A stretch of DNA of 64,000 bases, from NCBI GenBank assembly GCA_018223185.1, contig JAAEYW010000021.1, positions 1 through 64,000 of the forward strand, given 5' to 3'. Source of the DNA: Oceanospirillales bacterium. GTDB lineage: Bacteria > Pseudomonadota > Gammaproteobacteria > Pseudomonadales > Balneatricaceae. Position numbers and translations under genes: made by a program. Below, one piece after another: positions 2,675-51,574 of this stretch; position 1 is the stretch's first letter; every line of letters begins with the position of its first letter. Below the pieces are notes generated by a model, which searched no databases, had not been told where the DNA came from, and was given only the letters and a program-made list of their open reading frames with translations.

Positions 2675-3763
2675 ATGTCAGGAAACACCTACGGTAAGCT
2701 ATTTACTGTCACCACTTTCGGCGAAAGCCATGGTCCGGCTTTGGGCTGTATTATCGATGGTTGTCCTCCGGGCATTGAACTGACAGAAGCGGATTTGCAA
2801 CGCGATCTCGATCGCCGTAAGCCGGGGACCTCCCGACACACCACTCAGAGACGCGAAGCCGATGAGGTGAAAATTCTCTCCGGCGTGTTTGAAGGCAAGA
2901 CAACCGGAACACCCATTGGCCTGCTGATTGAAAATACCGATCAGCGTTCCAAGGACTATTCCAATATTGCCGAAACGTTCCGCCCGGCACATGCTGACTA
3001 CGTATACACTCATAAGTATGGTTTCCGTGATTATCGTGGTGGTGGTCGTTCATCAGCCCGGGAAACGGCAATGCGGGTGGCTGCTGGCGCGGTGGCGAAA
3101 AAGTACCTGGCGCAGAAAGGCGTTGAAGTGCGGGGTTATCTTTCTCAGCTCGGCCCGATCAAAATCGAAGGGTTTGACTGGGATCAGGTCGATCAGAATC
3201 CGTTTTTCTGTCCTGATGCCGGTAAAGTGGCAGAGATGGAAACCTATATGGATGCCCTGCGCAAAGAGGGTAACTCGATTGGTGCAAAAATTTCTGTTTC
3301 TGCGACAGGTGTGCCGGTAGGGCTGGGTGAGCCGATATTTGATCGGCTGGATGCGGATCTGGCTCATGCGCTGATGAGCATTAACGCCGTTAAGGGCGTG
3401 GAGATCGGTGATGGTTTCGCCTGTGTTGAGCAGAAAGGGACCGAACATCGGGATGAGATGACGCCTGAAGGCTTTCTCTCCAATCATTCCGGCGGCATTC
3501 TTGGTGGTATCTCTACCGGACAGGAGATCACCGCACATATCGCCTTAAAGCCAACCTCCAGTCTGCGCCTGTCAGGGCGGAGTATCAATAGCCGGGGAGA
3601 AGCGATTGAAGTGGTCACACAGGGGCGTCATGATCCGTGTGTGGGTATTCGCGCGACTCCAATTGCGGAAGCAATGATGGCGATTGTACTGATGGATCAC
3701 CTGTTGCGTCATCGCGCGCAAAATGCCGATGTAGTCTGTGAAACTCCGGTGTTAAAAGGTTAA
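2675..3763 (+). CDS. aroC: Chorismate synthase
   Basis: AroC removes phosphate from 5-enolpyruvylshikimate-3-phosphate to give chorismate, the last step of the shikimate pathway, using reduced FMN. At 362 residues the length is normal. Visible signatures are [12 protein letters not shown] at the N terminus, the [12 protein letters not shown] flavin/phosphate segment near residue 125, and GRHDPCVG near residue 325. The gene feeds the trpFBA genes found later in the window. It follows prmB by 52 bases and ends at a strong terminator. Confidence 0.98.
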
Positions 3764-3782
3764 AATTACGCGATAGCTTGAG

Positions 3783-3822
3783 TAACCCCTTGTTGCAAAT
3801 CTGTAACTAAGGGGTTTTTATT
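3783..3822 (+). terminator. Terminator after aroC
   Basis: AACCCCTT (3784-3791) pairs with AAGGGGTT (3809-3816), followed by a T-rich run. Confidence 0.8.
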
Positions 3823-3882
3823 TTTGGTTACTATTTTTTTAACGACGGCGCAAAACGTGCCTTTAGTTTTGGTGGATTAACT

Positions 3883-4734
3883 ATGACAGTCTATAAAGAG
3901 ACTCTTTACGACGGATACGGTCAGGCATTTGATGTGGAAGAGGTGCTGTTCGAGCAGCAGACAGATTCCTGGCATCTGATCATTTTCCGTAACCCTAAAT
4001 TCGGAACTGTTATGGCGCTGGATGGCATTATTCAGACCACTGAAAAAGATGAGTTTATCTATCATGAGATGCTGACTCATGTGCCACTGATGGCCCACGG
4101 CAGTGCTAAAAAAGTACTGATTATCGGCGGTGGTGATGGCGGAATGCTGCGAGAAGTCCTGAAGCATCAGTCTGTTGAAAGTGTCACTCAGGTTGAAATC
4201 GATCAGGCGGTTATTGATATGTGTGTCGAATATCTGCCGAACCATTCTCAGGGTGCATATGACAACCCGCGTGCCAATATCGTTATCGGTGATGGTATTG
4301 ATTATGTGTGTCAGACCGATGAAAAGTACGATGTGATTATCTCCGACTGTACCGATCCGGTCGGCCCGGGTGAGGTATTGTTCAGCAGCCGTTTCTACGA
4401 AGGCTGCAAGCGCTGTCTCAATGAAGGCGGTGTCTTCGTTGCTCAGAACGGTGTGGTCTATATGCAGCCTGAAGAGGTGGTCACCACCCGTCAGCGTCTT
4501 AGCCCATACTTTAAAGATCAGACTTTTTATACGGCTGCGGTGCCAACCTATATTGGCGGTGCAATGACTTTCGCCTGGGGCTGCGATAACCCGGCTACCC
4601 GGTTGCAGAGCGCAGAGCAGATCGTTGAACGCTTTAAAGCCAGTGGTATTAAAACCCGCTACTACAACCCGCAGATTCATGTGGGTAGTTTTGCCTTGCC
4701 GCAATATATTCTGGAGAAGTTAGGCGACGCCTGA
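3883..4734 (+). CDS. speE: Spermidine synthase (polyamine aminopropyltransferase)
   Basis: SpeE transfers the aminopropyl group of decarboxylated SAM to putrescine to make spermidine. The 283-residue protein matches the E. coli enzyme in size. The nucleotide motif GGGDGG is at residues 82-87 and the catalytic aspartates sit in [11 protein letters not shown] (Asp155 and Asp158). Its partner speD, which makes the decarboxylated SAM, is at 11863-12684, so the two genes of the step are split by about 7 kb instead of forming the E. coli speED operon. A GGTGG ribosome site precedes the ATG. Confidence 0.97.
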
Positions 4735-4784
4735 TTTCTGATCCAGTCAGCGTCGGTGCAGCCGGCCGTAGCTGAAACCCTGAT

Positions 4785-4816
4785 AATCCACCGGTTGAAT
4801 AAACCGGTGGATTTTT
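4785..4816 (+). terminator. Terminator after speE
   Basis: AATCCACCGGTTT-type arms (AATCCACCGG and CCGGTGGATT) form a near-perfect hairpin with a short loop, followed by TTTTG. Confidence 0.85.
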
Positions 4817-4884
4817 GTTTTCTGTAACCCGGTGCTTTTCTGGCACAGTCTGACCGTTCCGCACAGGAGTTAAAACGAGTCCCG

Positions 4885-6042
4885 ATGAAACTGAATACTT
4901 ACAGCCGTCTGTCGGGCTTCTATTTTTTCTACTTCTCGCTGCTGGGGGCTTTGGTTCCCTACTGGAGTCTCTATCTCAAGTCGTTTGATTTTAATGCGCA
5001 AACGATTGGCAGTCTGATGGCTATTCTAATGGCTTCGCGTATTGTTGCGCCCAATATCTGGGGTTGGCTGGCAGATCGCACTGGTCAGCGACTGCGTATT
5101 GTGCGCTATGGGGCATTTCTCACCTGTCTTATTTTTGTGCTGATCTTCTGGCAGGAAAGTGCTCTGGGTATTGCGCTGGTGATGACCGGGTTTAGTTTTT
5201 TCTGGAACGCAGTTCTGCCTCAGTTTGAAGTGTTGACGCTGACGCACCTGAAAGGGCGTGAGCATCTCTATAGCCGAATCCGTCTCTGGGGCTCTGTGGG
5301 TTTTATTCTTGCGGTAATGGGAATTGGCTGGCTGCTGGATTTGGTCAGTATCCGCTGGCTGCCCTGGGCGATGCTGGGGTTGATGGTGATGATCTGGTTA
5401 TCATCACTGTTTGTTGAGGGGAAAGCGCCGGTCCGCAGTAGTGAAGAAAGTCGATTTGTGCAGCAATTGTTGCGGCCTCAGGTGTTGGTGTTTTTTCTGG
5501 TCTGTTTGCTGATACAGTTCAGTCACGGTCCCTATTACACGTTTTACTCAGTGTTGATGGATAGTCTGGGGTACAGTCGTACCGAAATCGGTCTGCTGTG
5601 GTCGGTCGGGGTTGTTGCAGAAGTACTGATTTTTATACTCATGCCGAAACTGATTGGCGGGCTGGGATTGCGTAAACTGATGATCAGCAGTCTTCTGTTG
5701 TGCGTATTACGCTGGTTGCTGATCGGGCTGATACCGGAAAGCCTGCCACTTATGTTGTTTGCCCAGACGCTTCATGCGGTGAGTTTTGGTGTGTTGCATG
5801 CGGTCGGTATCGCGCTGGTGCACCATTATTTTTCCCCTTCCAATCATGGTCAGGGGCAGGCGATGTTCAGTAGCTTTGGGTTTGGTGTGGGCGGCGCACT
5901 GGGTGCGTTGTGCAGTGGAATGATGTGGGAATCGCTGGGTGCAGCCGCAACATTCAGCGTTGCTGCCGTGGCGGTTTTTATTGCTGCTATCTGCGCAACT
6001 ATTTGGATAAAACCGGAAAATTGTGCAGAAACGAATCGGTAA
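4885..6042 (+). CDS. MFS transporter, MFS_1-like (PPP/HcaT type)
   Basis: This is an inner-membrane secondary transporter of 385 residues with about 12 hydrophobic segments. Two six-helix halves are joined by a charged loop near residues 180-195. The loop-2 motif appears as GWLADRTGQRLR near residues 60-71. The short N terminus (YSRLSGFYFFYFSLLGALVPYW) and overall form resemble the MFS_1-like family that includes E. coli HcaT and sugar/nucleoside symporters. The substrate cannot be told from sequence. It stands alone between the speE terminator and a promoter region ahead of the DUF6489-type gene. Confidence 0.85.
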   Translation: MKLNTYSRLSGFYFFYFSLLGALVPYWSLYLKSFDFNAQTIGSLMAILMASRIVAPNIWGWLADRTGQRLRIVRYGAFLTCLIFVLIFWQESALGIALVMTGFSFFWNAVLPQFEVLTLTHLKGREHLYSRIRLWGSVGFILAVMGIGWLLDLVSIRWLPWAMLGLMVMIWLSSLFVEGKAPVRSSEESRFVQQLLRPQVLVFFLVCLLIQFSHGPYYTFYSVLMDSLGYSRTEIGLLWSVGVVAEVLIFILMPKLIGGLGLRKLMISSLLLCVLRWLLIGLIPESLPLMLFAQTLHAVSFGVLHAVGIALVHHYFSPSNHGQGQAMFSSFGFGVGGALGALCSGMMWESLGAAATFSVAAVAVFIAAICATIWIKPENCAETNR

Positions 6043-8459: not shown

Positions 8460-10919
8460 TCAGATATAGCGGCGACGTTTGAAGGACACGCTCTCTTTGT
8501 AGTCCTTCATCGAGCTGACCTTGCGGATATCTGCCCAGGTTCCTTTGTAATAGGGGATGTAGTTCCGATCGGTCCAGCTGGTGACGACATCTCCCACGTT
8601 ACCATTGAAATATCCGAACATCATGAAGGTGTGGCCACGCTTCATGTCCGGTTCCAGGTAGGCCATGGCAAAGGTGGCACCGAAGTCGTTGAAGACTTCA
8701 ACCACATCGCCTGACTCAATGCCCAGCTGTTTGGCATCTTCCGGGTTGATTTCAATTGGCGCCATGGGGTAACGCTTAGTACGGAAGTCGATGCGCTGGT
8801 CATGGTAGGCGGTTTGCCAGATATGGTTGGTACGGCCGTTGTTAATCCAGAACCTGTATTTTTTTCGCTGGGACTCAACCATAGCCGGCAGGCCGGTCCA
8901 CTCCGCAGGCAGAAAGTGTGCCTTCCCGTCAGAGGTGCTGAACTTATAATCGGAGTAGATCATCTCGGTTCCGATCAGCTGACCTTCTCTGTACTCTCTG
9001 ACGGGTAATTGTACCCCGTTGTTACCTTGCGTACGCAGCCGCTCATAGGTGACAAGATGTCCGGTGTCCCCGCCCTGGCTGTCGATGCCTTCGGGTTTGC
9101 GGAACCCATCGTTGAAGGAATCTTCTTCGGTCTTCCAGTCGAAGCCCGAGAAGCGTCCGGCCATCTTCTTGTTGCCCTCCTTCTCGTACATTGCTTTGAG
9201 GGTGTTGGCAATTTTCGCCGCTATCAGGCAGTCCGGCATGGCTTCTCCGGGAGGGTCCATGAATTTATCCGACAGACGCATACGGCGCTCACCGTTCATT
9301 GAAGTGAGGTTCATCTCCCCGGGGTGGGCGGCTGGCAACATCAGATGAGATGCCTGGGCAAACTTGGTCGGGTATAAATCGATGGTGGTAATGAATAAGC
9401 CGCCGTGATTAGTAACTGCATCAAAGATAGCATCGACCATGCTTTCCACGCCGCCACCGCGTACCTGCGCCAGGGCATCACGGACAATATTTGCACGACG
9501 ATAAAGCGTCTGACGATATTGCTGAGCATTCAGAGTAGACTGGAACGCGTTGCAGGCCCACACGGTAAGCATCTTGCCATTACCCCGGATGATTTCCTGG
9601 TCGATGTAGATCGGCTGCTTACCGGGATAAGGTGGACGTGCGTAGCCCTCCTGGTGGCCACCGAGACGACAGACTCCGGTGCCGCGACGACCGACATTGT
9701 GGGTGGCCAGCACCAGATCAACCAGTGCGGACTGAATACGGTAGTTGTCGTTGCCCCAGATGATGCCCTTTTCATACAGATGTGCGGTGCGTGGGCGATG
9801 GCCGGATTTCTTAGGTTTATAAGCCCAGTCGGCTGCTTTCTCCAGGTCTGCCACTGAGATGCCGGTAATTCTGGAGCAATTATCCAGGCTCATATGGTTG
9901 GCCTTCAGAGCCTTATCGAAGCCTGTTGTATGTTGATCAATGAAGTCCTGATCGTGCCAGCCCTTGTCTGCCACGTAAGTCAGCAGGCCGTCGAACAGTG
10001 CCGTATCGGTGCCAGGGTTGATCTGCAGGTGCAGCACATTATCCTTAGCGTTATTCTGACAGATCGCCGTGGTCAGGGTGCGGCGCGGATCGACCAGAAT
10101 GAAGCGTCCATTTTCGACTGTTTCGTCTTTGAACCACGCTTTTTTCTTAGCTATAGTGGTGCCGGTCAGGTTGGGCAGGGCGTGAGCGAGGAAGTAGTTG
10201 GTCTGGGTCTCGTAGGCGTTCGCGCCAATGAACATGATAGTGTCAGCCAGCTCGCTGTCCTCGTAGCTATTGTTCAGCTCACCGATGCCCATGTCGCGGG
10301 TGGCATGGCACTCTGAATTGTAGGCCGGGCGGTTATGGATACGCACCATCCGGGTCTTGAGTGCAGAGAACATTAATTTACCGCTGCCCCAGGTGTTTTC
10401 AAAGCCGCCCCCGGCACCGCCATGATCAAAGGCGTTGAACATAATAGAATCGGGACCAAAGGTGTCCAGCATCCGTTTGGTCACGCCTGCATAGACTGCC
10501 ATGGCCTCGTCCCAGCTTACATCCACCCAGTCATCCCCGGTAAACAGACGCGGGTACTTGAGACGGTCACGGGAGATACCCTCGGCGTTGTACATAATTG
10601 TGGCCATCTGCCCGCCGCGGGTCGAAGTCAGGCCCTGATTAACCACGCATTCCTTGTCCGACTGGATCATGATGTTAAATTTTTTGCCGTTGTCTTCAAC
10701 CACGTTGACCATGGCTGGCGTCATGCTGCCGGATAGCGGCGGTTGCTGTTTGCGAAAGTCCTTACCTAAAGCATTCTCGTTCGGCGCACGGCCGCCCTCG
10801 GTGCCATGGGGCCATTTGTAAACATGGTAGCCGCAACCGACGATACAGAAGTGGCAGGTCATATTGGTTTTCTGAGCACCCACAGGGGGCAGTGGTACAC
10901 GATCTTTGTTATGTGACAT
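8460..10919 (-). CDS. aioA: Arsenite oxidase, molybdopterin large subunit AioA
   Basis: AioA oxidises As(III) to As(V) in the periplasm with a bis-molybdopterin guanine dinucleotide molybdenum centre and a [3Fe-4S] cluster, and passes electrons to AioB. At 819 residues it matches known AioA proteins. The cluster ligands are Cys22, Cys25 and Cys29 in [17 protein letters not shown] serine replaces the fourth cysteine in GLTSTRGG, as in characterised AioA. The substrate-site segments [11 protein letters not shown] and RLGGHQEGY are present, as is the [16 protein letters not shown] stretch. There is no signal peptide, which is normal because AioA is exported with AioB. It follows aioB by 17 bases with a GGAGGG ribosome site. 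Confidence 0.96.
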
Positions 10920-44263: not shown

Positions 44264-46858
44264 TTACGCTGTTGCGATCACGTTAGATGCTTTGTCGATA
44301 TAAGAGTCGATCTGATCGAAGTTCAGGTAGCGGTATACATCGGCAGACATGCTGTCGATCTTAGTCGCGTAATCCATGTACTCCTCAACAGTCGGGATCT
44401 TACCAAGCAGAGCGGCTACCGCTGCCAGTTCAGCAGATGACAGGTAGACGTTAGCGCCGGTACCCAGGCGGTTAGGGAAGTTACGGGTAGATGTAGACAC
44501 TACGGTTGTATTGTCACCTACGCGTGCCTGGTTACCCATGCACAGAGAGCATCCTGGCATCTCTATACGAGCGCCCGCTTTACCAAAGATGTTGTAGTAA
44601 CCCTCTTCAGTCAGCTGAGCGGCATCCATCTTGGTTGGTGGTGCGATCCACATGCGGGTTGGGATAGATGCGCCAGAGGCTTCCAACAGTTTACCCGCAG
44701 CGCGGAAGTGGCCGATGTTGGTCATACAGGAGCCAATGAACACTTCATCAATGTGAGTGCCGGCAACTTCAGACAGCAGCTTAACGTCATCAGGATCGTT
44801 CGGGCATGCCAGAATCGGCTCTTTAACATCTGCCAGATCGATTTCGATAACGGCAGCATAATCAGCATCAGCATCGCCTTCCATCAGTTCCGGATTGGCC
44901 AGCCACTCTTCCATGCCCTTGATGCGGCGCTCGATAGTACGTGGGTCACCGTAGCCTTCAGCGATCATCCACTTCAGCATGGTGATGTTAGAGCTCAGGT
45001 ATTCTTTAATCGGTGCTTCATCCAGCTTGATGGAGCATGCTGCAGCAGAACGTTCGGCCGCAGAGTCAGACAGTTCGAATGCCTGCTCAACTTTCAGATC
45101 TGGCAGGCCTTCGATCTCAAGAATACGACCAGAGAAGATGTTCTTCTTACCCGCTTTGGCAACGGTCAGCAGACCCTGCTTGATCGCGTAGTAAGGAATT
45201 GCGTTAACCAGATCACGCAGGGTGATACCGGGCTGCAGCTGAGTGCCTTTGAAGCGAACCAGAACAGACTCAGGCATATCCAGAGGCATAACGCCGGTTG
45301 CAGCAGCGAACGCTACCAGGCCAGAACCCGCCGGGAATGAAATACCGATCGGGAAACGGGTGTGAGAGTCACCACCGGTACCCACGGTATCAGGTAGCAG
45401 CATACGGTTCAGCCAGGAGTGGATTACACCGTCACCAGGGCGCAGGGAAACACCGCCGCGGTTCATGATGAAATCTGGCAGGGTATGGTGAGTCTGCACG
45501 TCAACAGGCTTAGGGTACGCTGCTGTGTGACAGAATGACTGCATGGTCAGGTCGGCAGAGAAGCCCAGGCAAGCCAGGTCTTTCAGCTCGTCACGGGTCA
45601 TCGGGCCGGTAGTATCCTGAGAGCCAACAGTGGTCATCTTAGGTTCACAGTATGTACCAGGACGAACACCTTCTACGCCACAGGCTTTACCAACCATCTT
45701 CTGAGCCAGGGAGTAGCCTTTACCGGTATCAACAGGCTGATCAGGCTTGCGGAACAGATCAACAGGACCCAGACCCAGCGCCTCACGGGCACGATCAGTC
45801 AGGCCGCGGCCGATGATCAGAGGGATACGGCCGCCAGCACGAACTTCGTCCAGCAGAACCTGAGTTTTCAGACCGAATTCACAAAGTGTTTCGCCGGTTT
45901 CTGCGTTAACAGCCTTGCCTTCATATGGGTAGATGTCGACTACATCGCCCATGTTCATCTTGTCTACATCCATTTCGATCGGCAGGGCACCGGCATCTTC
46001 CATGGTATTGAAGAAGATAGGCGCAATCTTACCACCGAAGCAGTATCCGCCAGCACGCTTGTTTGGTACGTTCGGGATATCGTCGCCGAAGAACCACAGC
46101 ACTGAGTTGGTTGCAGACTTACGGGAAGAGCCCGTACCGACAACGTCACCAACATAAGCTACAGGGTAGCCTTTGGCTTTAACGTCTTCGATCTGTTTCA
46201 GTGGGCCAACTGAGCCTGGTTTAGACGGCTCAATCCCTTCACGCTCCATTTTCAGCATGGCGTTTGCGTGCAGCGGGATGTCCGGGCGGGTGAAAGCATC
46301 GGGAGCAGGAGACAGGTCGTCAGTGTTGGTCTCGCCGGGTACTTTGAATACAGTAACGGTGATCTTTTCTGGCAGTTCAGGTTTAGACGTAAACCACTCG
46401 CCAGCAGCCCATGATTCCAGAACCTGTGTGGCGAAAGCGTTACCTGCATCGGCTTTGTCTTTAACGTCATGGAATGCGTCAAACATCAGCAGTGTGTGAG
46501 ACAGTGCTTTTACTGCAGTCGGGGCCAGTTCATCTTCATCCAGCGCCGCGATCAGAGGCTGGATGTTGTAGCCACCCAGCATTGTTCCCAGCAGTTCAAC
46601 GGCTTTAACTTTGTCGATCAGTGGAGATTCTGCTTCACCTTTTGAAATGGCAGCCAGAAATCCAGCTTTAACATATGCCGCCTGGTCAACGCCGGCAGGT
46701 ACTCGGTTTTCCAACAGGTCCAGGATAAATGCTTCTTCGCCAGCAGGTGGGTTTTTAAGTAATTCAACCAGCGCTGCAGTCTGATCTGCATCCAGTGGTT
46801 TTGCTGGCACGCCTTCTTGGGCGCGTTCTTCTACATGTTTACGGTAAGCTTCAAGCAC
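44264..46858 (-). CDS. acnB: Aconitate hydratase B
   Basis: AcnB interconverts citrate and isocitrate in the TCA cycle; the apo form of E. coli AcnB also binds mRNA. The 864-residue protein has the N-terminal HEAT-like domain specific to AcnB ([20 protein letters not shown] start). The swivel domain follows, then the [4Fe-4S] domains with [17 protein letters not shown] and [14 protein letters not shown] holding the cluster cysteines. Its leader carries a 9-base-pair inverted repeat and a palindrome. Confidence 0.98.
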
Positions 46859-47283: not shown

Positions 47284-47736
47284 GTGAATTCACCAATCTG
47301 GGCTGCAGTTTCCGGCTGGGAGCTGAATGCTGAGCTTGAAGGGCTAAATGCGCTCAACATTGAAACTATTTTCACTGCGTTAGAAGGCAAAGAGCTTATC
47401 TATGACGGACCGCACAAATCTGTTCTGTTGCACCACTTCAACCGTTTAGTGGCCTCCCGTCCCAATAATCTGCGCAGTCAGGTGCAGAGGGTTTATCTCT
47501 CTATCTTATGTCATGACGAAGCGGAACTGACCGGTGCGCTACTCGATCTTTATCTGACGCTTGATGGGAAAGGTCTGGCGCTGCGTAAAAGGCTTTTGGA
47601 GCAAGGCGCTGATCTGATTAGAGAAGAGGATCTTCAAGTGTTTAAGGCAACGCTGGTGGATGGAGATAATCACAGACTGTTGCAGTTAAATAAACAGAAG
47701 TCAGTGTTGTGCAACGGTAACTTTGCACTGCATTAA
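47284..47736 (+). CDS. Unknown protein, first gene of the roadblock cluster
   Basis: I do not recognise this 150-residue protein. It is soluble and mostly helical, begins MNSPIWAAVSGWELNAELEG, and has one Cys in the middle (LSILCHDEAELTGALLDLYL) and one near the end. GTG 47284 is the start, with GAGGG nine bases upstream; the codon pattern is coding-like throughout. It lies 30 bases ahead of the receiver-like gene on the same strand. It may be a partner or adaptor of the cluster. Confidence 0.65.
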   Translation: MNSPIWAAVSGWELNAELEGLNALNIETIFTALEGKELIYDGPHKSVLLHHFNRLVASRPNNLRSQVQRVYLSILCHDEAELTGALLDLYLTLDGKGLALRKRLLEQGADLIREEDLQVFKATLVDGDNHRLLQLNKQKSVLCNGNFALH

Positions 47737-47766
47737 TCTGTATTTTAAATTTCTCACTATAACGGG

Positions 47767-49077
47767 GTGTACGTAGTCGTGGGAGTATCTCATATCAAAC
47801 TGAACAAGCGTGCTGCAAACAATGTCATTAAACTGGCAATAGTTGGCTTTGAGTTGCAATCTAAAACGGCGATGGATCTCTTCTTCATGCAGCATCAGGG
47901 TGTCTATGGTCTGGTGTCAACTGAACATGCTGATGTTCTTATCATTGATATGGAACACCCCGCCGTTAAACCGATTATTGAGCAGTATAGGCTTAGCCGG
48001 CCAATTGTAGCGGTTACAGCGACCGAGAATCAGTTCTCAGGGTTTCAAACCCTGCGTAAGCCTCTTGACGGTAAACGCCTGATAAAAGCAATTAATCAGG
48101 CGGCTGATAATTTTGTTCCCGAGGGGAGCAATAGTCAGAAGTCGGTTAACAGCGTCAGCACTGAAGGCGAAAAAGCGTTTCAGGAATATCAAAAGCGGCT
48201 GGCAACCGGTCGCCAGGCGATGGCCGACTACAAAACCATTACGTCAGATCGCGACCTGAATTCTTCTCAGGTACGTAAGCGTTTTCAGCTTGATCAGGAC
48301 ACGACTTCAGCTGCCCCGGCTGAGACAGGTTGCGATGACCCGGTTGCCAGCGTCGAAGCACCAGAAAACAATAGTGTTGCGTCACAACAGCCAGTCAGAC
48401 CCACTGTAGCCGAGCCAGTTGAGCGTAAAACTGCAGAAAAGAGGCCTCAGGACGTTAAAGCGAGGCTGTCCTATCAGATGGTCTATGAGTGCTGCGGTAA
48501 TGCCCCGGATGTTAATATGCATGAGCCGGATCAGCGCCGCAGAGTTTTCTTTAAAGAGGATTCAACCCTGCTGGCGCTTTTGCAGCAGGCGATAGTTGAA
48601 GGTGAGGCTCAAAACGTACCCATCGAGATAACCGGCCTGCCGGGCACGCTTGCTTATCTTAATGAGCATAAGAAGTTTCTGTTCGATTTTAGCGAAGACC
48701 TTTTAATTCCACTGGCGCTGACCCGGTTTGGCTATCAGGAGCTAACGCTTAAGGAACGACCAGACCTGGAGCTTGACCGTCCAAGTCTGACCGGATCAAC
48801 GGTCTCTCTTATTGAAAGTGATGAAATGATATGGAAGCTGGCGCTCTGGACGTCGAAGGGGCGTCTCAATCGAGATATCGATCCGGAGCAGCCTTATCGG
48901 CTGAACGCGCCTCTTGATTTTGAGCGGTTACTTGTAATACCACATGCGTCCACCATTAGCAGTTTGTGGGGGCGGCATAGCTTGTCAGCGCTGGAAGTGG
49001 TAAAAGTTCTGAAGATTCATCAGCGTTACGTGTTTTCATTCATGACTGCCGCCTATGCCCTTGGGGTATTCAGGTAA
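47767..49077 (+). CDS. Receiver-like protein with unknown C-terminal domain
   Basis: This 436-residue protein seems to have three parts. Residues 20-112 resemble a response-regulator receiver: IKLAIVGFEL, then VLIIDMEHPA with Asp61, IVAVTATE with Thr84 and LRKPLDGKRL with Lys98. The N-terminal acidic pair of true receivers is absent, so phosphorylation is doubtful. Residues 130-235 are a Gln/Pro/Glu-rich linker. Residues 240-436 form a globular domain I cannot name, with WKLALWTSKGRLNRDI and a final hydrophobic helix. The start is GTG 47767 or GTG 47779. Confidence 0.65.
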   Translation: MYVVVGVSHIKLNKRAANNVIKLAIVGFELQSKTAMDLFFMQHQGVYGLVSTEHADVLIIDMEHPAVKPIIEQYRLSRPIVAVTATENQFSGFQTLRKPLDGKRLIKAINQAADNFVPEGSNSQKSVNSVSTEGEKAFQEYQKRLATGRQAMADYKTITSDRDLNSSQVRKRFQLDQDTTSAAPAETGCDDPVASVEAPENNSVASQQPVRPTVAEPVERKTAEKRPQDVKARLSYQMVYECCGNAPDVNMHEPDQRRRVFFKEDSTLLALLQQAIVEGEAQNVPIEITGLPGTLAYLNEHKKFLFDFSEDLLIPLALTRFGYQELTLKERPDLELDRPSLTGSTVSLIESDEMIWKLALWTSKGRLNRDIDPEQPYRLNAPLDFERLLVIPHASTISSLWGRHSLSALEVVKVLKIHQRYVFSFMTAAYALGVFR

Positions 49078-49171
49078 CAGAAGGCAGTAGTTGACGACCC
49101 TTTATTTCTTCTGCAGTACCGTTGTAATAAGGGATTTTGTAACTTATAAAAATGTAGCCGGAGATATTTTG

Positions 49172-49807
49172 GTGGGAGATTACAATCAGGACTCCATTCG
49201 GTATATCGCTATCACCCCTAGCGGAGCCTATTTTGCCACATTGAATTCAGCCCCGGATGATGCGAGGGCAATGTTGTTGCAGTTGCTGTCAACAGATTTT
49301 CAACTGCTCTATTCACTGGAGCTGGTGTCTGAGCTGGCTGATCTTGACGAGACTCAGGCCATGGGGTTGTTTCAGCAACTACTTGATCGGGGGTTTGTGG
49401 CACTATCTGAATCGCCTGCAGAGATAAAGCGGGGGCCGCTAGAAGATATCCTGCCTGATCTGCTGAAGCAGATCTCTGATAGTGGTAAGGCATTGTTAGC
49501 CGATGATCAGGGTTTTTGTCTTTCCTCGACTGGTTATTCTGTCGAACAGTCCGAAACCCTGGCTGCCCTTGCAGCAGACCTGCTGTCCTTGCAAGAGCGT
49601 CATAAGCATATTTTAACCAGTGATCTGAGTGTGGCGGGAGACTCCTGGGGCATTATGAATGCTGCAGGGCAAAGTCAGCTTGGTTTTTGGGGGATCTATA
49701 TTGGTCATCAGCGTTTTACGCTGGTTATATCCGATATGCCTAAACTGAATCAGCAGGCCTTTGCTGAAATACTGGCGAGCCTTGCCCGTCGGTATCTCGA
49801 TTACTAA
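49172..49807 (+). CDS. Roadblock-like protein, long form
   Basis: This 211-residue soluble protein is placed by the GTG at 49172, with CGGAG upstream; the frame is open to 49091 but the added residues look non-coding. The N-terminal 95 residues are helical (LLQLLSTDFQLLYSLELVSEL). The C-terminal half (ALLADDQGFCLSSTGYSVEQ, then AALAADLLSLQERH and a final ILASLARRYL helix) has the strand-helix order of roadblock/LC7 domains. The assignment is by pattern only. It is between the receiver-like gene and a clear roadblock gene. Confidence 0.55.
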   Translation: MGDYNQDSIRYIAITPSGAYFATLNSAPDDARAMLLQLLSTDFQLLYSLELVSELADLDETQAMGLFQQLLDRGFVALSESPAEIKRGPLEDILPDLLKQISDSGKALLADDQGFCLSSTGYSVEQSETLAALAADLLSLQERHKHILTSDLSVAGDSWGIMNAAGQSQLGFWGIYIGHQRFTLVISDMPKLNQQAFAEILASLARRYLDY

Positions 49808-49860
49808 TTGATAGATTTAATGAACTCCCATACAGGGAAAAGAAATGGAAGGAGTGTTTT

Positions 49861-50223
49861 ATGCGTTCTGAGATGCTGACCTCAATATTGAGTGATCTCA
49901 ACGGCACATCTGCTGATATCGAAGCCTCTGCGGTTATTTCTACAGATGGTCTGATGATTGCGGCGCTGCTGCCATCAAGTATGGATGAAGACCGTGTTGG
50001 TGCAATGAGTGCTGCAATGTTGTCTCTGGGGGAGCGTACAGCAAAAGAGCTGGCCCGGGGTGAACTTGAGCAGGTACTGGTGAAAGGGGATGAGGGGTAT
50101 ATCCTGATGACCCATGCGAATCAGGACTCAGTTCTGACTGTTGTTGCTAAGCCGAATGCGCGTCTGGGTCTGATATTCCTGGACGTTAAGCGTGCGGCAG
50201 AAGCGATCGGTAAGATCCTTTAA
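49861..50223 (+). CDS. Roadblock/LC7 (MglB-like) protein
   Basis: Roadblock/LC7 proteins are small dimeric scaffolds, often regulators of Ras-like GTPases such as MglA. The 120-residue protein has the full pattern: a first helix (MLTSILSDLNGTSADI), ASAVISTDGLMIAALLP, the helix AAMLSLGERTAKELARG, then QVLVKGDEGYILMTHA and SVLTVVAKPNARLGLIFLDV. No MglA-like GTPase is encoded nearby. AAGGAG precedes the ATG by nine bases. Confidence 0.88.
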   Translation: MRSEMLTSILSDLNGTSADIEASAVISTDGLMIAALLPSSMDEDRVGAMSAAMLSLGERTAKELARGELEQVLVKGDEGYILMTHANQDSVLTVVAKPNARLGLIFLDVKRAAEAIGKIL

Positions 50224-50302
50224 TCGTTAACAACTGGCACTGATTCAGGATCGAACTGCTAGCAGGGATGGTTCGCGGTGCCTGAGCGAAGAAGGCGTAA
50301 GT

Positions 50303-50773
50303 ATGTCTGAGCAAGACACAGGAGAAGTGAGTACTGTTGAAATAACATATTTTGATGGTACAAAGCGCATGACAGATATCGTCGATCGGGAAGTTCCTTA
50401 TCCGGATGGCAAGCTGATCGTGTCCAGAACTGATCCGCAAGGCTTTATTACCCATGCGAATCAGGCATTTATAGATATGTCCGGTTACAGTGAAGATGAA
50501 CTGATCGGAACTAATCATTACATTTTGCGCCACCCCGATATGCCTGCAGTGGCCTTTAAAGGACTCTGGGATACTATCGAACAGGGTACAAAGTGGCATG
50601 GTTATGTAAAAAACCTGCGTAAAGATGGCGCATATTATTGGGTAAAGGCCACGGTTATACCAAATATCCGCAATGGTAAGCTGGTGGGTTATACGTCGGT
50701 TCGCCGTAAGCCTTCGCGTAGTAAAATTGAAGAGAGCGAAGCGCTGTATAAGACACTGATGGCTGAGGAGTGA
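50303..50773 (+). CDS. Free-standing Aer-type PAS protein
   Basis: This 156-residue protein is an Aer-like PAS domain without HAMP or receptor parts. From residue 40 it tracks the E. coli Aer sensor: FITHANQAFIDMSGYSEDEL, ILRHPDMPAVAF (Arg76, His77, Asp79), GLWDTIEQGTKWHGYVKNLR (Trp98) and YYWVKATVIP. In Aer the equivalent Arg, His, Asp and Trp bind FAD, so a redox flavin cofactor is likely here. It stops just before the substrate-binding-protein gene. Confidence 0.87.
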   Translation: MSEQDTGEVSTVEITYFDGTKRMTDIVDREVPYPDGKLIVSRTDPQGFITHANQAFIDMSGYSEDELIGTNHYILRHPDMPAVAFKGLWDTIEQGTKWHGYVKNLRKDGAYYWVKATVIPNIRNGKLVGYTSVRRKPSRSKIEESEALYKTLMAEE

Positions 50774-50778
50774 TAAAG

Positions 50779-51525
50779 ATGACATATAATCTCACGGTCA
50801 GCCCTGACTTTGCGCCAGACCATATTTCAGGATGGTATTTCTTTAACACATGGTTGCAGCGTAAGCTGGATGTTGGTATCCACCTTGAGCTGTATGATAA
50901 CTTTGATACGCAGCGTTCCGATATTCGTGCCGATAAGTTTGATCTGATTTATGCGAACCCATACGACGCCTCTATGCTGGTGCGCGAGATGGGATTTCAG
51001 GCGGTTGTAAGACCTGCCAGTAAATCTGATGAAACGGTTATTGCGGTCAATGCTGAGTCTCCTTTTCAGACAGTCGAAGATCTTAGTTCAGGATGCCGCG
51101 TGGCGACGACAGACGATCCGGATGTGCATACCATGGGTATGATTATGCTGGAGTCTGCAGACCTGGATAAAAACAATACTGCGATAAAGGAATATAGCAG
51201 CTATGTTGTCGTAGCTAAAAACCTGTTAAACGGCGATGCTGATGCAGGATTTTTTCTTAAAGACGCGTATGATGAGCTGTCTGAACTGATTCGTTCGAAA
51301 ATGCGGGTTCTGGTGAGTAGCCAGATCAGTGTTGTGCATCACAGCCTGCTGGTAGGCCCTAGAATGGCTGAACATATTCCTGCAATTCAGGCTGCTTTGC
51401 TGACCATGCAGGAGGATGAGAAAGGTAAGGGTGTGCTGGAAAGTATGGATATCGATAACTGGGAGCCTATGGACTCAGAGCAGACTGAGTTTATGATTGA
51501 CCTTATCGACACGCTTATCGATTAA
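50779..51525 (+). CDS. PhnD-like substrate-binding protein without signal peptide
   Basis: This 248-residue protein has the type of fold seen in phosphonate/phosphite-binding proteins (PhnD/SsuA group): SPDFAPDHISGWYFFNTWLQ, FDLIYANPYDASMLVREMG, VRPASKSDETVIAV and the hinge region TDDPDVHTMGM. The N terminus (MTYNLTVSPDFAP) has no signal peptide or lipobox, so it should stay in the cytoplasm. No ABC permease or ATPase gene is near. ATG 50779 follows GGAG and lies 5 bases after the PAS stop, so the two are coupled. Confidence 0.8.
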   Translation: MTYNLTVSPDFAPDHISGWYFFNTWLQRKLDVGIHLELYDNFDTQRSDIRADKFDLIYANPYDASMLVREMGFQAVVRPASKSDETVIAVNAESPFQTVEDLSSGCRVATTDDPDVHTMGMIMLESADLDKNNTAIKEYSSYVVVAKNLLNGDADAGFFLKDAYDELSELIRSKMRVLVSSQISVVHHSLLVGPRMAEHIPAIQAALLTMQEDEKGKGVLESMDIDNWEPMDSEQTEFMIDLIDTLID

Positions 51526-51545: not shown

Positions 51546-51574
51546 AAAAAACGCCCCGGTTGGGGCGTTTTTTT
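51546..51574. terminator. Bidirectional terminator between the PhnD-like gene and the chemoreceptor gene
   Basis: AAAAACGCCCC pairs with GGGGCGTTTTT around GGTT-type loop bases. Confidence 0.9.

What the first reader, a model, noticed from the sequence alone, without database searches (positions are those of the whole stretch)
47284..51525. Six-gene cluster joining roadblock proteins, an Aer-type PAS domain, an odd receiver and a cytoplasmic binding protein
Six same-strand genes with short gaps encode: an unknown helical protein, an atypical receiver with an unknown C-terminal domain, a roadblock-like protein, a true roadblock/LC7 protein, a free Aer-like PAS, and a PhnD-like protein with no signal peptide. 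A chemoreceptor gene converges on them. Roadblock proteins normally scaffold small GTPases, yet none is here. My inference is a cytoplasmic redox or metabolite signalling module that may tune chemotaxis or polarity. I know of no characterised system with this set.
Basis: partly seen in the sequence, partly recalled or inferred. Interest (0 to 1): 0.75.

Follow-up and report, generated by a model that had tools for sequence, protein, structure and literature searches.

The report
Redox-linked roadblock operon missing its GTPase
Six neighbouring genes in a marine bacterium appear to be what remains of a widespread signalling operon that normally contains a Ras-like switch protein; here the switch gene is gone while its platform proteins and an oxygen/redox-type sensor are kept, which lets one ask what such platforms do without their switch.

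Summary
In detail: six same-strand genes (47284-51525) encode a protein of unknown family, a pseudo-receiver protein, two roadblock proteins, a free Aer-type PAS protein and a PhnD-like protein without a visible signal peptide. In 96 distinct beta/gammaproteobacterial loci all genes found lie on one strand, and 66 have the full order. In 34 loci a Ras-like GTPase gene (MglA, 'Group 3' type) is present, between genes 2 and 3 where both are found. By parsimony it was lost in the Oceanospirillaceae clade (including this Amphritea-type genome) and at least once more. Roadblock gene 4 shows no relaxation. Gene 1 lacks its TPR tail in both of these lineages. Five of the 18 loci without the PAS gene carry a protoglobin. 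41 of 62 cluster-bearing family genomes have an MglA elsewhere, in 39 within a frame long enough for the MglA-roadblock (Rag-like) fusion seen in the 18 examined; 21 have none found. Best reading: a redox/ligand-sensing roadblock module derived from a Group 3 mgl operon, now GTPase-free in cis. The neighbouring chemoreceptor is not a conserved part. Output unknown; type IV pili/polarity is an inference.

The parts
47284..47736 (+). gene 1: 150-aa protein, short form of a protein that elsewhere carries a C-terminal TPR tail
   Evidence: tail = TPR, some FimV-C/PilW-like
47767..49077 (+). gene 2: pseudo-receiver (18-118) + long helix (132-173) + confident C-terminal domain (236-436) of untested fold
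49172..49807 (+). gene 3: roadblock domain with a winged-helix-like N-terminal part (likely start GTG 49172, not 49091)
49861..50223 (+). gene 4: roadblock/LC7 (MglB-type) protein, the most conserved of genes 3-6
50303..50773 (+). gene 5: free Aer-type PAS protein
50779..51525 (+). gene 6: PhnD-like binding protein without visible signal peptide (likely start ATG 50779; ORF opens at GTG 50770)
51546..51573 (.). intrinsic-terminator-like hairpin AAAAAACGCCCC-GGTT-GGGGCGTTTTTT, works on paper in both directions
   Evidence: read
49078..49171 (+). junction at which GTPase-bearing loci have the MglA gene (290-679 nt between the frames there, 94 nt here)

Best explanation
The cluster descends from a Group 3-type mgl operon: TPR-tailed protein - pseudo-receiver protein - MglA GTPase - roadblock with winged-helix-like part - roadblock - sensor gene(s). 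Shown by sequence comparison: common descent and order; absence of the MglA gene from between genes 2 and 3 in the Oceanospirillaceae clade and, separately, in another family; absence of gene 1's TPR tail in both; continued strong constraint on roadblock gene 4; and alternative redox/gas-type sensors (Aer PAS, usually with the PhnD-like protein, or protoglobin). That these absences are losses is inferred by parsimony. Inferred mechanism: the PAS protein (FAD redox state) and the PhnD-like protein (a small cytoplasmic ligand) act on a roadblock dimer or heterodimer of genes 3 and 4. In the ancestral form this sets the GTP state of MglA, whose GTP form recruits gene 1's TPR tail and works with the pseudo-receiver protein, much as MglA, MglB, RomR and SgmX do in Myxococcus. 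In the window genome the switch in the operon is gone. The roadblock platform either serves the MglA-roadblock fusion encoded elsewhere, or, in the third of genomes with no MglA found, passes the signal straight to the pseudo-receiver protein and its C-terminal domain.
For: One strand in 96 of 96 distinct loci, 45 with 1-2-3-4-5-6 and 21 with 1-2-MglA-3-4-5-6. MglA in locus in 34 of 96. Tree of genes 2+3+4, 51 rows: starred branches force 3 changes of MglA presence; Oceanospirillaceae with L170/L171 as one clade is rejected, p 0.0009 (groups chosen after seeing the tree). Gene-1 tail in 30 of 30 loci with gene 1 and MglA (the profile was built from 22 MglA-bearing loci) and in 1 of 52 with gene 1 and no MglA; frame lengths agree. 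Gene 4: 61 of 69 columns conserved at 95% or more in 22 MglA-bearing loci stay so in 52 without; its relative rate is lower, not higher, without MglA. In 369 class genomes, gene 4 (E 1e-20) and MglA (E 1e-10): 39 with both, 7 and 27 with one, Fisher p 9e-28. In the family, 62 of 116 genomes have gene 4, 41 of 116 have MglA, all 41 inside the 62. Fused MglAs are one clade (100/99) beside in-locus MglAs. PAS or protoglobin, never both, in the 96 loci. All 16 gene-6 places above 230 bits in 369 genomes lie beside gene 4.
Against: No contact between any two of these proteins was tested; only single chains could be folded. FAD, heme or ligand binding was not tested. The Halothiobacillus locus L112 lacks MglA but keeps the TPR tail, and grouping it with the Oceanospirillaceae is not rejected (p 0.096). 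The nesting of the fused MglAs among in-locus ones has moderate support (82/87, 94/69). In 3 Oceanospirillaceae loci (L081, L091, L107) genes 5 and 6 are not found, so the sensors are dispensable. Four more gene-6 relatives at 137-209 bits (3 genomes) lie away from gene 4. Profile comparison did not link gene 3 with gene 4. Absence of MglA from the L112, L170 and L171 genomes rests, which scored only 9 candidates a genome. Pairs and losses are few and phylogenetically dependent.
Confidence: 0.6

Rival explanations
1. The cluster still works with a GTPase: the MglA-roadblock fusion encoded elsewhere is the displaced operon MglA, and genes 3/4 are its GAP/GEF platform, so little but gene position has changed.
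For: 41 of 41 family genomes with MglA also have the cluster, 0 of 54 without it do (Fisher 9e-16). The fused MglAs are one clade attached beside in-locus MglAs. Own genome has one at G000:C8:77441-77974 in a 376-aa frame.
Against: 21 of 62 cluster-bearing family genomes have no MglA in a protein search and a profile search, including two single-contig genomes rated 100% complete (G021, G024); none was found in the genomes of L170, L171 and L112 either (9 candidates scored each).
Confidence: 0.4
2. A transcription regulator: pseudo-receiver protein and the winged-helix-like roadblock bind DNA, and the PAS/PhnD pair controls this; no polarity or pilus role.
For: Gene 3's N-terminal part has a winged-helix-like order of elements; PMC4316618 (passages) predicts a winged-helix C-terminus in the Group 3 receiver-like protein and suggests gene regulation.
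Against: No DNA-binding family matched gene 2's C-domain; for gene 3 only single members of 40 matched HTH- or RHH-type families, and the fold comparison did not reach this part. Winged helices also serve as protein contacts.
Confidence: 0.25
3. A chemotaxis accessory module working with the neighbouring receptor.
For: The receptor converges on the cluster; the PAS protein resembles Aer; L046 has another receptor next to the cluster.
Against: Full-length orthologue of the receptor in only 2 of 20 representative loci; 21 receptors in the genome; hairpin between them.
Confidence: 0.07
4. Genes 3 and 4 are decaying relics after MglA loss.
For: MglA and the gene-1 tail are gone.
Against: Gene 4 is 83-100% identical to the window's in the Oceanospirillaceae loci, while matched parts of gene 2 fall to 27-35% in other genera; no relaxation.
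Confidence: 0.02

Closest known systems
Group 3 MglA systems of beta/gammaproteobacteria (Wuichet and Sogaard-Andersen, PMC4316618, passages read)
   Same: Receiver-like protein with variable linker and a second conserved domain, plus one or two MglB/roadblock proteins; the in-locus GTPases of relatives have the DAR-type G5 that the paper gives for Groups 2 and 3, and the Neisseria locus, a genus the paper names, has the same gene types in pieces.
   Different: No GTPase in the operon here; a TPR-derived gene 1, an Aer PAS gene and a PhnD-like gene belong to the set, none of which appears in the passages read. No tree with the paper's own Group 3 sequences was built.
Myxococcus xanthus polarity proteins MglA, MglB, RomR and the effector SgmX (PMC7519303, PMC9481161, passages read; MglC from the abstract listing of PMC12719032)
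   Same: Roadblock proteins, a receiver-domain protein, and a TPR protein; SgmX binds MglA-GTP.
   Different: One operon with redox-type sensors built in; GTPase absent from the window's operon; no demonstrated polarity role.
Snodgrassella mgl locus (PMC11112851, passages read)
   Same: Group 3 mglA with coupled mglB genes; mutation reported to change pilus-type colony spreading and gut colonisation.
   Different: Still has MglA; the mutation was in an orphan mglB; no PAS or PhnD-like gene mentioned in the passages.
Actinobacterial conservons CvnA-D (PMC4316618 passages; abstract of PMC13343842 in a search listing)
   Same: Operon of sensor, roadblock, unknown protein and MglA-type GTPase.
   Different: Input there is a histidine-kinase-like protein; here PAS, PhnD-like or globin proteins.
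HGbRL globin-roadblock fusion of Methylacidiphilum (PMC4476040, passages read)
   Same: A heme domain coupled to a roadblock domain.
   Different: Covalent fusion, no operon of this kind; globin, not PAS.

Membership tests
Group 3 MglA system | Conserved protein with receiver-like N-terminus | tested here: met
Group 3 MglA system | That protein's C-terminus like a winged helix-turn-helix | tested here: inconclusive
   Confident C-domain without a Pfam or PDB sequence relative; not folded alone
Group 3 MglA system | MglA GTPase encoded in the locus | tested here: not met
   94-nt gap between genes 2 and 3 in the window; met in 34 of 96 related loci
Group 3 MglA system | One or two MglB/roadblock proteins | tested here: met
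   Gene 4 Pfam over cut-off; gene 3 by fold
Group 3 MglA system | Placement in the published Group 3 clades | not tested
   No tree with the paper's sequences
MglB (GTPase-activating roadblock) | Roadblock fold | tested here: met
MglB (GTPase-activating roadblock) | Acts on a cognate GTPase | not testable with these tools
   Co-occurrence only
Aer-type FAD PAS | Sequence relation to the Aer PAS domain incl. RHPDMP | tested here: met
   motif in 75 of 78
Aer-type FAD PAS | Binds FAD | not testable with these tools
   -
ABC phosphonate substrate-binding protein | PF12974 domain | tested here: met
   147 bits
ABC phosphonate substrate-binding protein | Export signal and transporter genes beside it | tested here: not met
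   Starts MTYNLTVSPD (by eye); the six-gene unit holds no ABC transporter gene
Chemosensory module | Conserved linkage to this chemoreceptor | tested here: not met
   Full length in 2 of 20 loci

The most novel reading that the evidence does not exclude
Roadblock proteins here work as a redox/ligand-gated signalling platform with no GTPase at all: after the MglA switch left the operon, the sensor (Aer PAS or protoglobin) drives the roadblock pair, which acts directly on a pseudo-receiver effector. In the same family the displaced MglA became a Rag-like GTPase-roadblock fusion that plugs into this platform, a bacterial counterpart of Rag-Ragulator.
Probability: 0.3. Interest if true: 0.8.

Novelty: new variant of a known kind. 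Interest (0 to 1): 0.62.

Why it matters
Roadblock proteins are known above all as partners of small GTPases, in all domains of life. Repeated removal of the GTPase gene while its roadblocks stay under strong constraint is a natural experiment on what roadblocks do by themselves. The sensor slot (Aer PAS, usually with a PhnD-like protein, or protoglobin) gives the Group 3 mgl systems a testable input, redox state or oxygen; the TPR tail missing together with MglA is a prediction of which protein is the MglA effector; and the MglA-roadblock fusion offers a simple bacterial model for the Rag GTPase layout.

Tried and rejected
Rejected: chemoreceptor as part of the set; relic status; GTPase simply overlooked at the locus (gap of -115 to 171 nt in the Oceanospirillaceae loci, no P-loop frame found); a GTPase elsewhere in every genome (21 of 62 have none found).

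Led nowhere or weak: hhalign of gene 3 with gene 4 and of the fused-MglA tail with gene 3 found nothing; the fold look at gene 2 filled with receivers, so the C-domain fold is untested rather than new, and its profile has no PDB or Pfam relative; promoter-like sites at chance level, while 11 terminator-like sites against 4.4 expected, all within or before the genes, stay unexplained. PilB over cut-off in 57 of 62 cluster genomes against 29 of 54 others (counted by hand; Fisher 4e-6) fits a pilus role but follows genome size, completeness and kinship. Searches of the paper library listed no paper on this set (one search listed 10 of 38 papers, 6 of 16). Gene 1 and the fused MglA were not folded (two structure jobs only).

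Sampling limits: one search kept the best 80 of 258 loci, so Oceanospirillaceae are over-represented. Four duplicate loci were dropped; 10 of 96 loci without gene 2 or 3 were left out of the tree, and 35 of the 54 MglA-free rows were thinned out. Some of the 96 loci are cut by contig ends (L126, L127, L131, L172) or hold gene 4 with few partners (L173-L176); they count as 'no MglA seen', not as losses. In L122 and L128 overlong frames blur the order, judged there by frame ends.
Full report
Observation. The six genes are present as described. With the corrected starts 49172 and 50779 the gaps are 30, 94, 53, 79 and 5 nt; a hairpin with a T-run closes the unit at 51546-51573 (read). Gene 3 is a roadblock by fold with a winged-helix-like N-terminal part judged from element order only; 15 of 40 relatives reach Robl_LC7 at E 0.01. 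Gene 2 has a receiver fold whose acidic pair is replaced (G at position 27 in 40 of 47) and whose phosphorylation position is N in 23 and D in 22 of 47, so I call it a pseudo-receiver. Gene 5 is Aer-type.

Where it is found. The window genome is placed by the tool in one genus with genomes whose contigs match Amphritea records in length and position, family Oceanospirillaceae by the NCBI ranks shown. Genes 2 and 4 occur in the same 62 of 116 family genomes. Among 20 representative family loci 19 keep all six genes in order and one lacks genes 5 and 6. A wider scan gave 258 related loci, best 80 kept; with 20 loci from a class-wide sample and four duplicates removed there are 96 distinct loci, in all of which the genes found lie on one strand.

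The GTPase. In more distant beta- and gammaproteobacteria (Sphaerotilus, Leptothrix, Leucothrix, Rhodocyclaceae and others) a Ras-like GTPase, 178-181 aa where measured, with motifs such as GPVGAGKTTA and GTPGQERF lies between genes 2 and 3. [quoted passage not shown] It is present in 34 of the 96 loci (30 + 4). In 369 genomes sampled across the class, 33 of 42 strong gene-4 places have MglA within 4 kb, 4 have it elsewhere (the window genome among them), and in 5 genomes none was found.

Losses. On a tree of genes 2, 3 and 4 (51 rows: all 32 MglA-bearing rows and 19 of 54 MglA-free ones) three changes of MglA presence are forced by starred branches: the Oceanospirillaceae clade, L170/L171, and L112. 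Joining L170/L171 with the Oceanospirillaceae is rejected (p 0.0009), joining L112 is not (p 0.096). So at least two events are well supported; the direction (loss, not gain) rests on the spread of MglA through the rest of the tree and is an inference.

What went with it. Gene 1 of MglA-bearing loci is 216-266 aa where its start is plausible, with a C-terminal tail of TPR type: of 19 proteins scanned, 13 of them tailed, TPR_19 matches 9, FimV_Cterm 4 and PilW 4; the profile finds FimV 4mal at E 0.0039. The tail is present in 30 of 30 loci with gene 1 and MglA, 22 MglA-bearing loci having served to build the profile, and in 1 of 52 with gene 1 and no MglA, the exception being L112. Since SgmX, a TPR protein, is the MglA-GTP effector for type IV pili in Myxococcus (PMC7519303, passages), I infer that the tail is the MglA-binding part. 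This is two co-losses and one counter-example, not a large sample.

What stayed. Gene 4 is not relaxed: 61 of its 69 columns conserved at 95% in 22 MglA-bearing loci remain so in 52 MglA-free ones, where 91 columns are conserved (the latter are closer kin). Its divergence relative to gene 6 is 0.28 (median) without and 0.36 with MglA, and the ratios to genes 3 and 5 go the same way (pairs are not independent).

MglA elsewhere. 41 of 116 family genomes have an MglA away from the cluster, and all 41 have the cluster; in 21 of 62 cluster genomes neither search found one. In 39 of the 41 at least one MglA lies in an open frame of 316 aa or more. In the 18 such proteins examined the extra C-terminal part matches roadblock chains as a profile (7f8m 8.4e-5, dynein roadblock 3.8e-4); singly only 2 of 18 match Robl_LC7. 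G domain plus roadblock is the layout of Rag GTPases (recalled; C-terminal parts of Rag chains appear). The 18 are one clade (100/99) beside in-locus MglAs.

Sensor slot. 78 of 96 loci have the PAS gene; RHPDMP is kept in 75 of 78. Five of the 18 loci without it have a protoglobin (Pfam 74-91 bits) between genes 3 and 4 or after gene 4; none was found in the 78. Three of these five are close kin (L115, L170, L171). L175 has a CZB protein after gene 4, and L170/L171 a GAF histidine kinase. A Thermus plasmid has DUF4388 - GTPase - roadblock - protoglobin, and a globin-roadblock fusion is described in Methylacidiphilum (PMC4476040, passages). Redox or gas sensors thus recur beside roadblocks. The gene-6 subfamily is tied to this operon: all 16 places above 230 bits in 369 genomes lie beside gene 4; four at 137-209 bits do not.

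Mechanism and confidence. Descent from a Group 3-type mgl operon with loss of the GTPase: about 0.85. Redox/ligand input through genes 5 and 6 onto the roadblocks: about 0.6. Output: unknown; pili/polarity about 0.35, transcription about 0.25. By the membership test the window cluster is not itself a Group 3 MglA system because the GTPase is absent from the locus; it would work like, and derive from, one.

Literature. Passages of PMC4316618, PMC11112851, PMC7519303, PMC9481161, PMC11580455 and PMC4476040 were read; others were seen in search listings only. No paper on a roadblock operon with an Aer PAS and PhnD-like gene was listed; most subscription papers are not in that library.

Noticed in passing
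G000:C8:77441-77974 (L149:7313-8413): MglA-type GTPase with a C-terminal part that matches roadblock domains as a family profile, the Rag layout, in the window's own genome; two copies side by side in some relatives (L154, L155, L160).
   Followed up: partly
L189 (Thermus thermophilus plasmid) 2834-4963: DUF4388 protein - GTPase - roadblock - protoglobin operon: a second, distant case of a heme-type sensor beside a roadblock/GTPase pair.
   Followed up: partly
L170:5592-6932 and L171:6815-8230: GAF-HisKA-HATPase histidine kinase after gene 4 in operons without MglA that carry a protoglobin; the pseudo-receiver there has D at the phosphorylation position.
   Followed up: partly
L112:9219-9953: An extra PhnD-like protein (PF12974, 77.5 bits) between genes 3 and 4 in a Halothiobacillus MAG whose operon lacks MglA.
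   Followed up: no
L154:8070-8423 and 9579-9908 (also L153, L155, L157, L159, L164, L165, L167): A same-strand frame of about 109-128 aa follows the MglA-roadblock fusion gene; the two scanned have no Pfam family, and their relatedness was not tested.
   Followed up: no
L032 (NZ_CP119142.1): A 2.17-Mb Neisseria gonorrhoeae record filed as a plasmid looks like a chromosome by its size; its mgl-type operon reads as several overlapping fragments, so it may be decayed in that strain.
   Followed up: no
G000:C9:66060-66755: A second, weak relative (63 bits) of the PhnD-like gene 6 elsewhere in the window's genome, in a 274-aa frame.
   Followed up: no
window 44264-46858: Aconitase-like gene (acnB type, recalled) on the other strand upstream of the cluster; by eye a like-starting frame lies there in relatives of several genera.
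   Followed up: no
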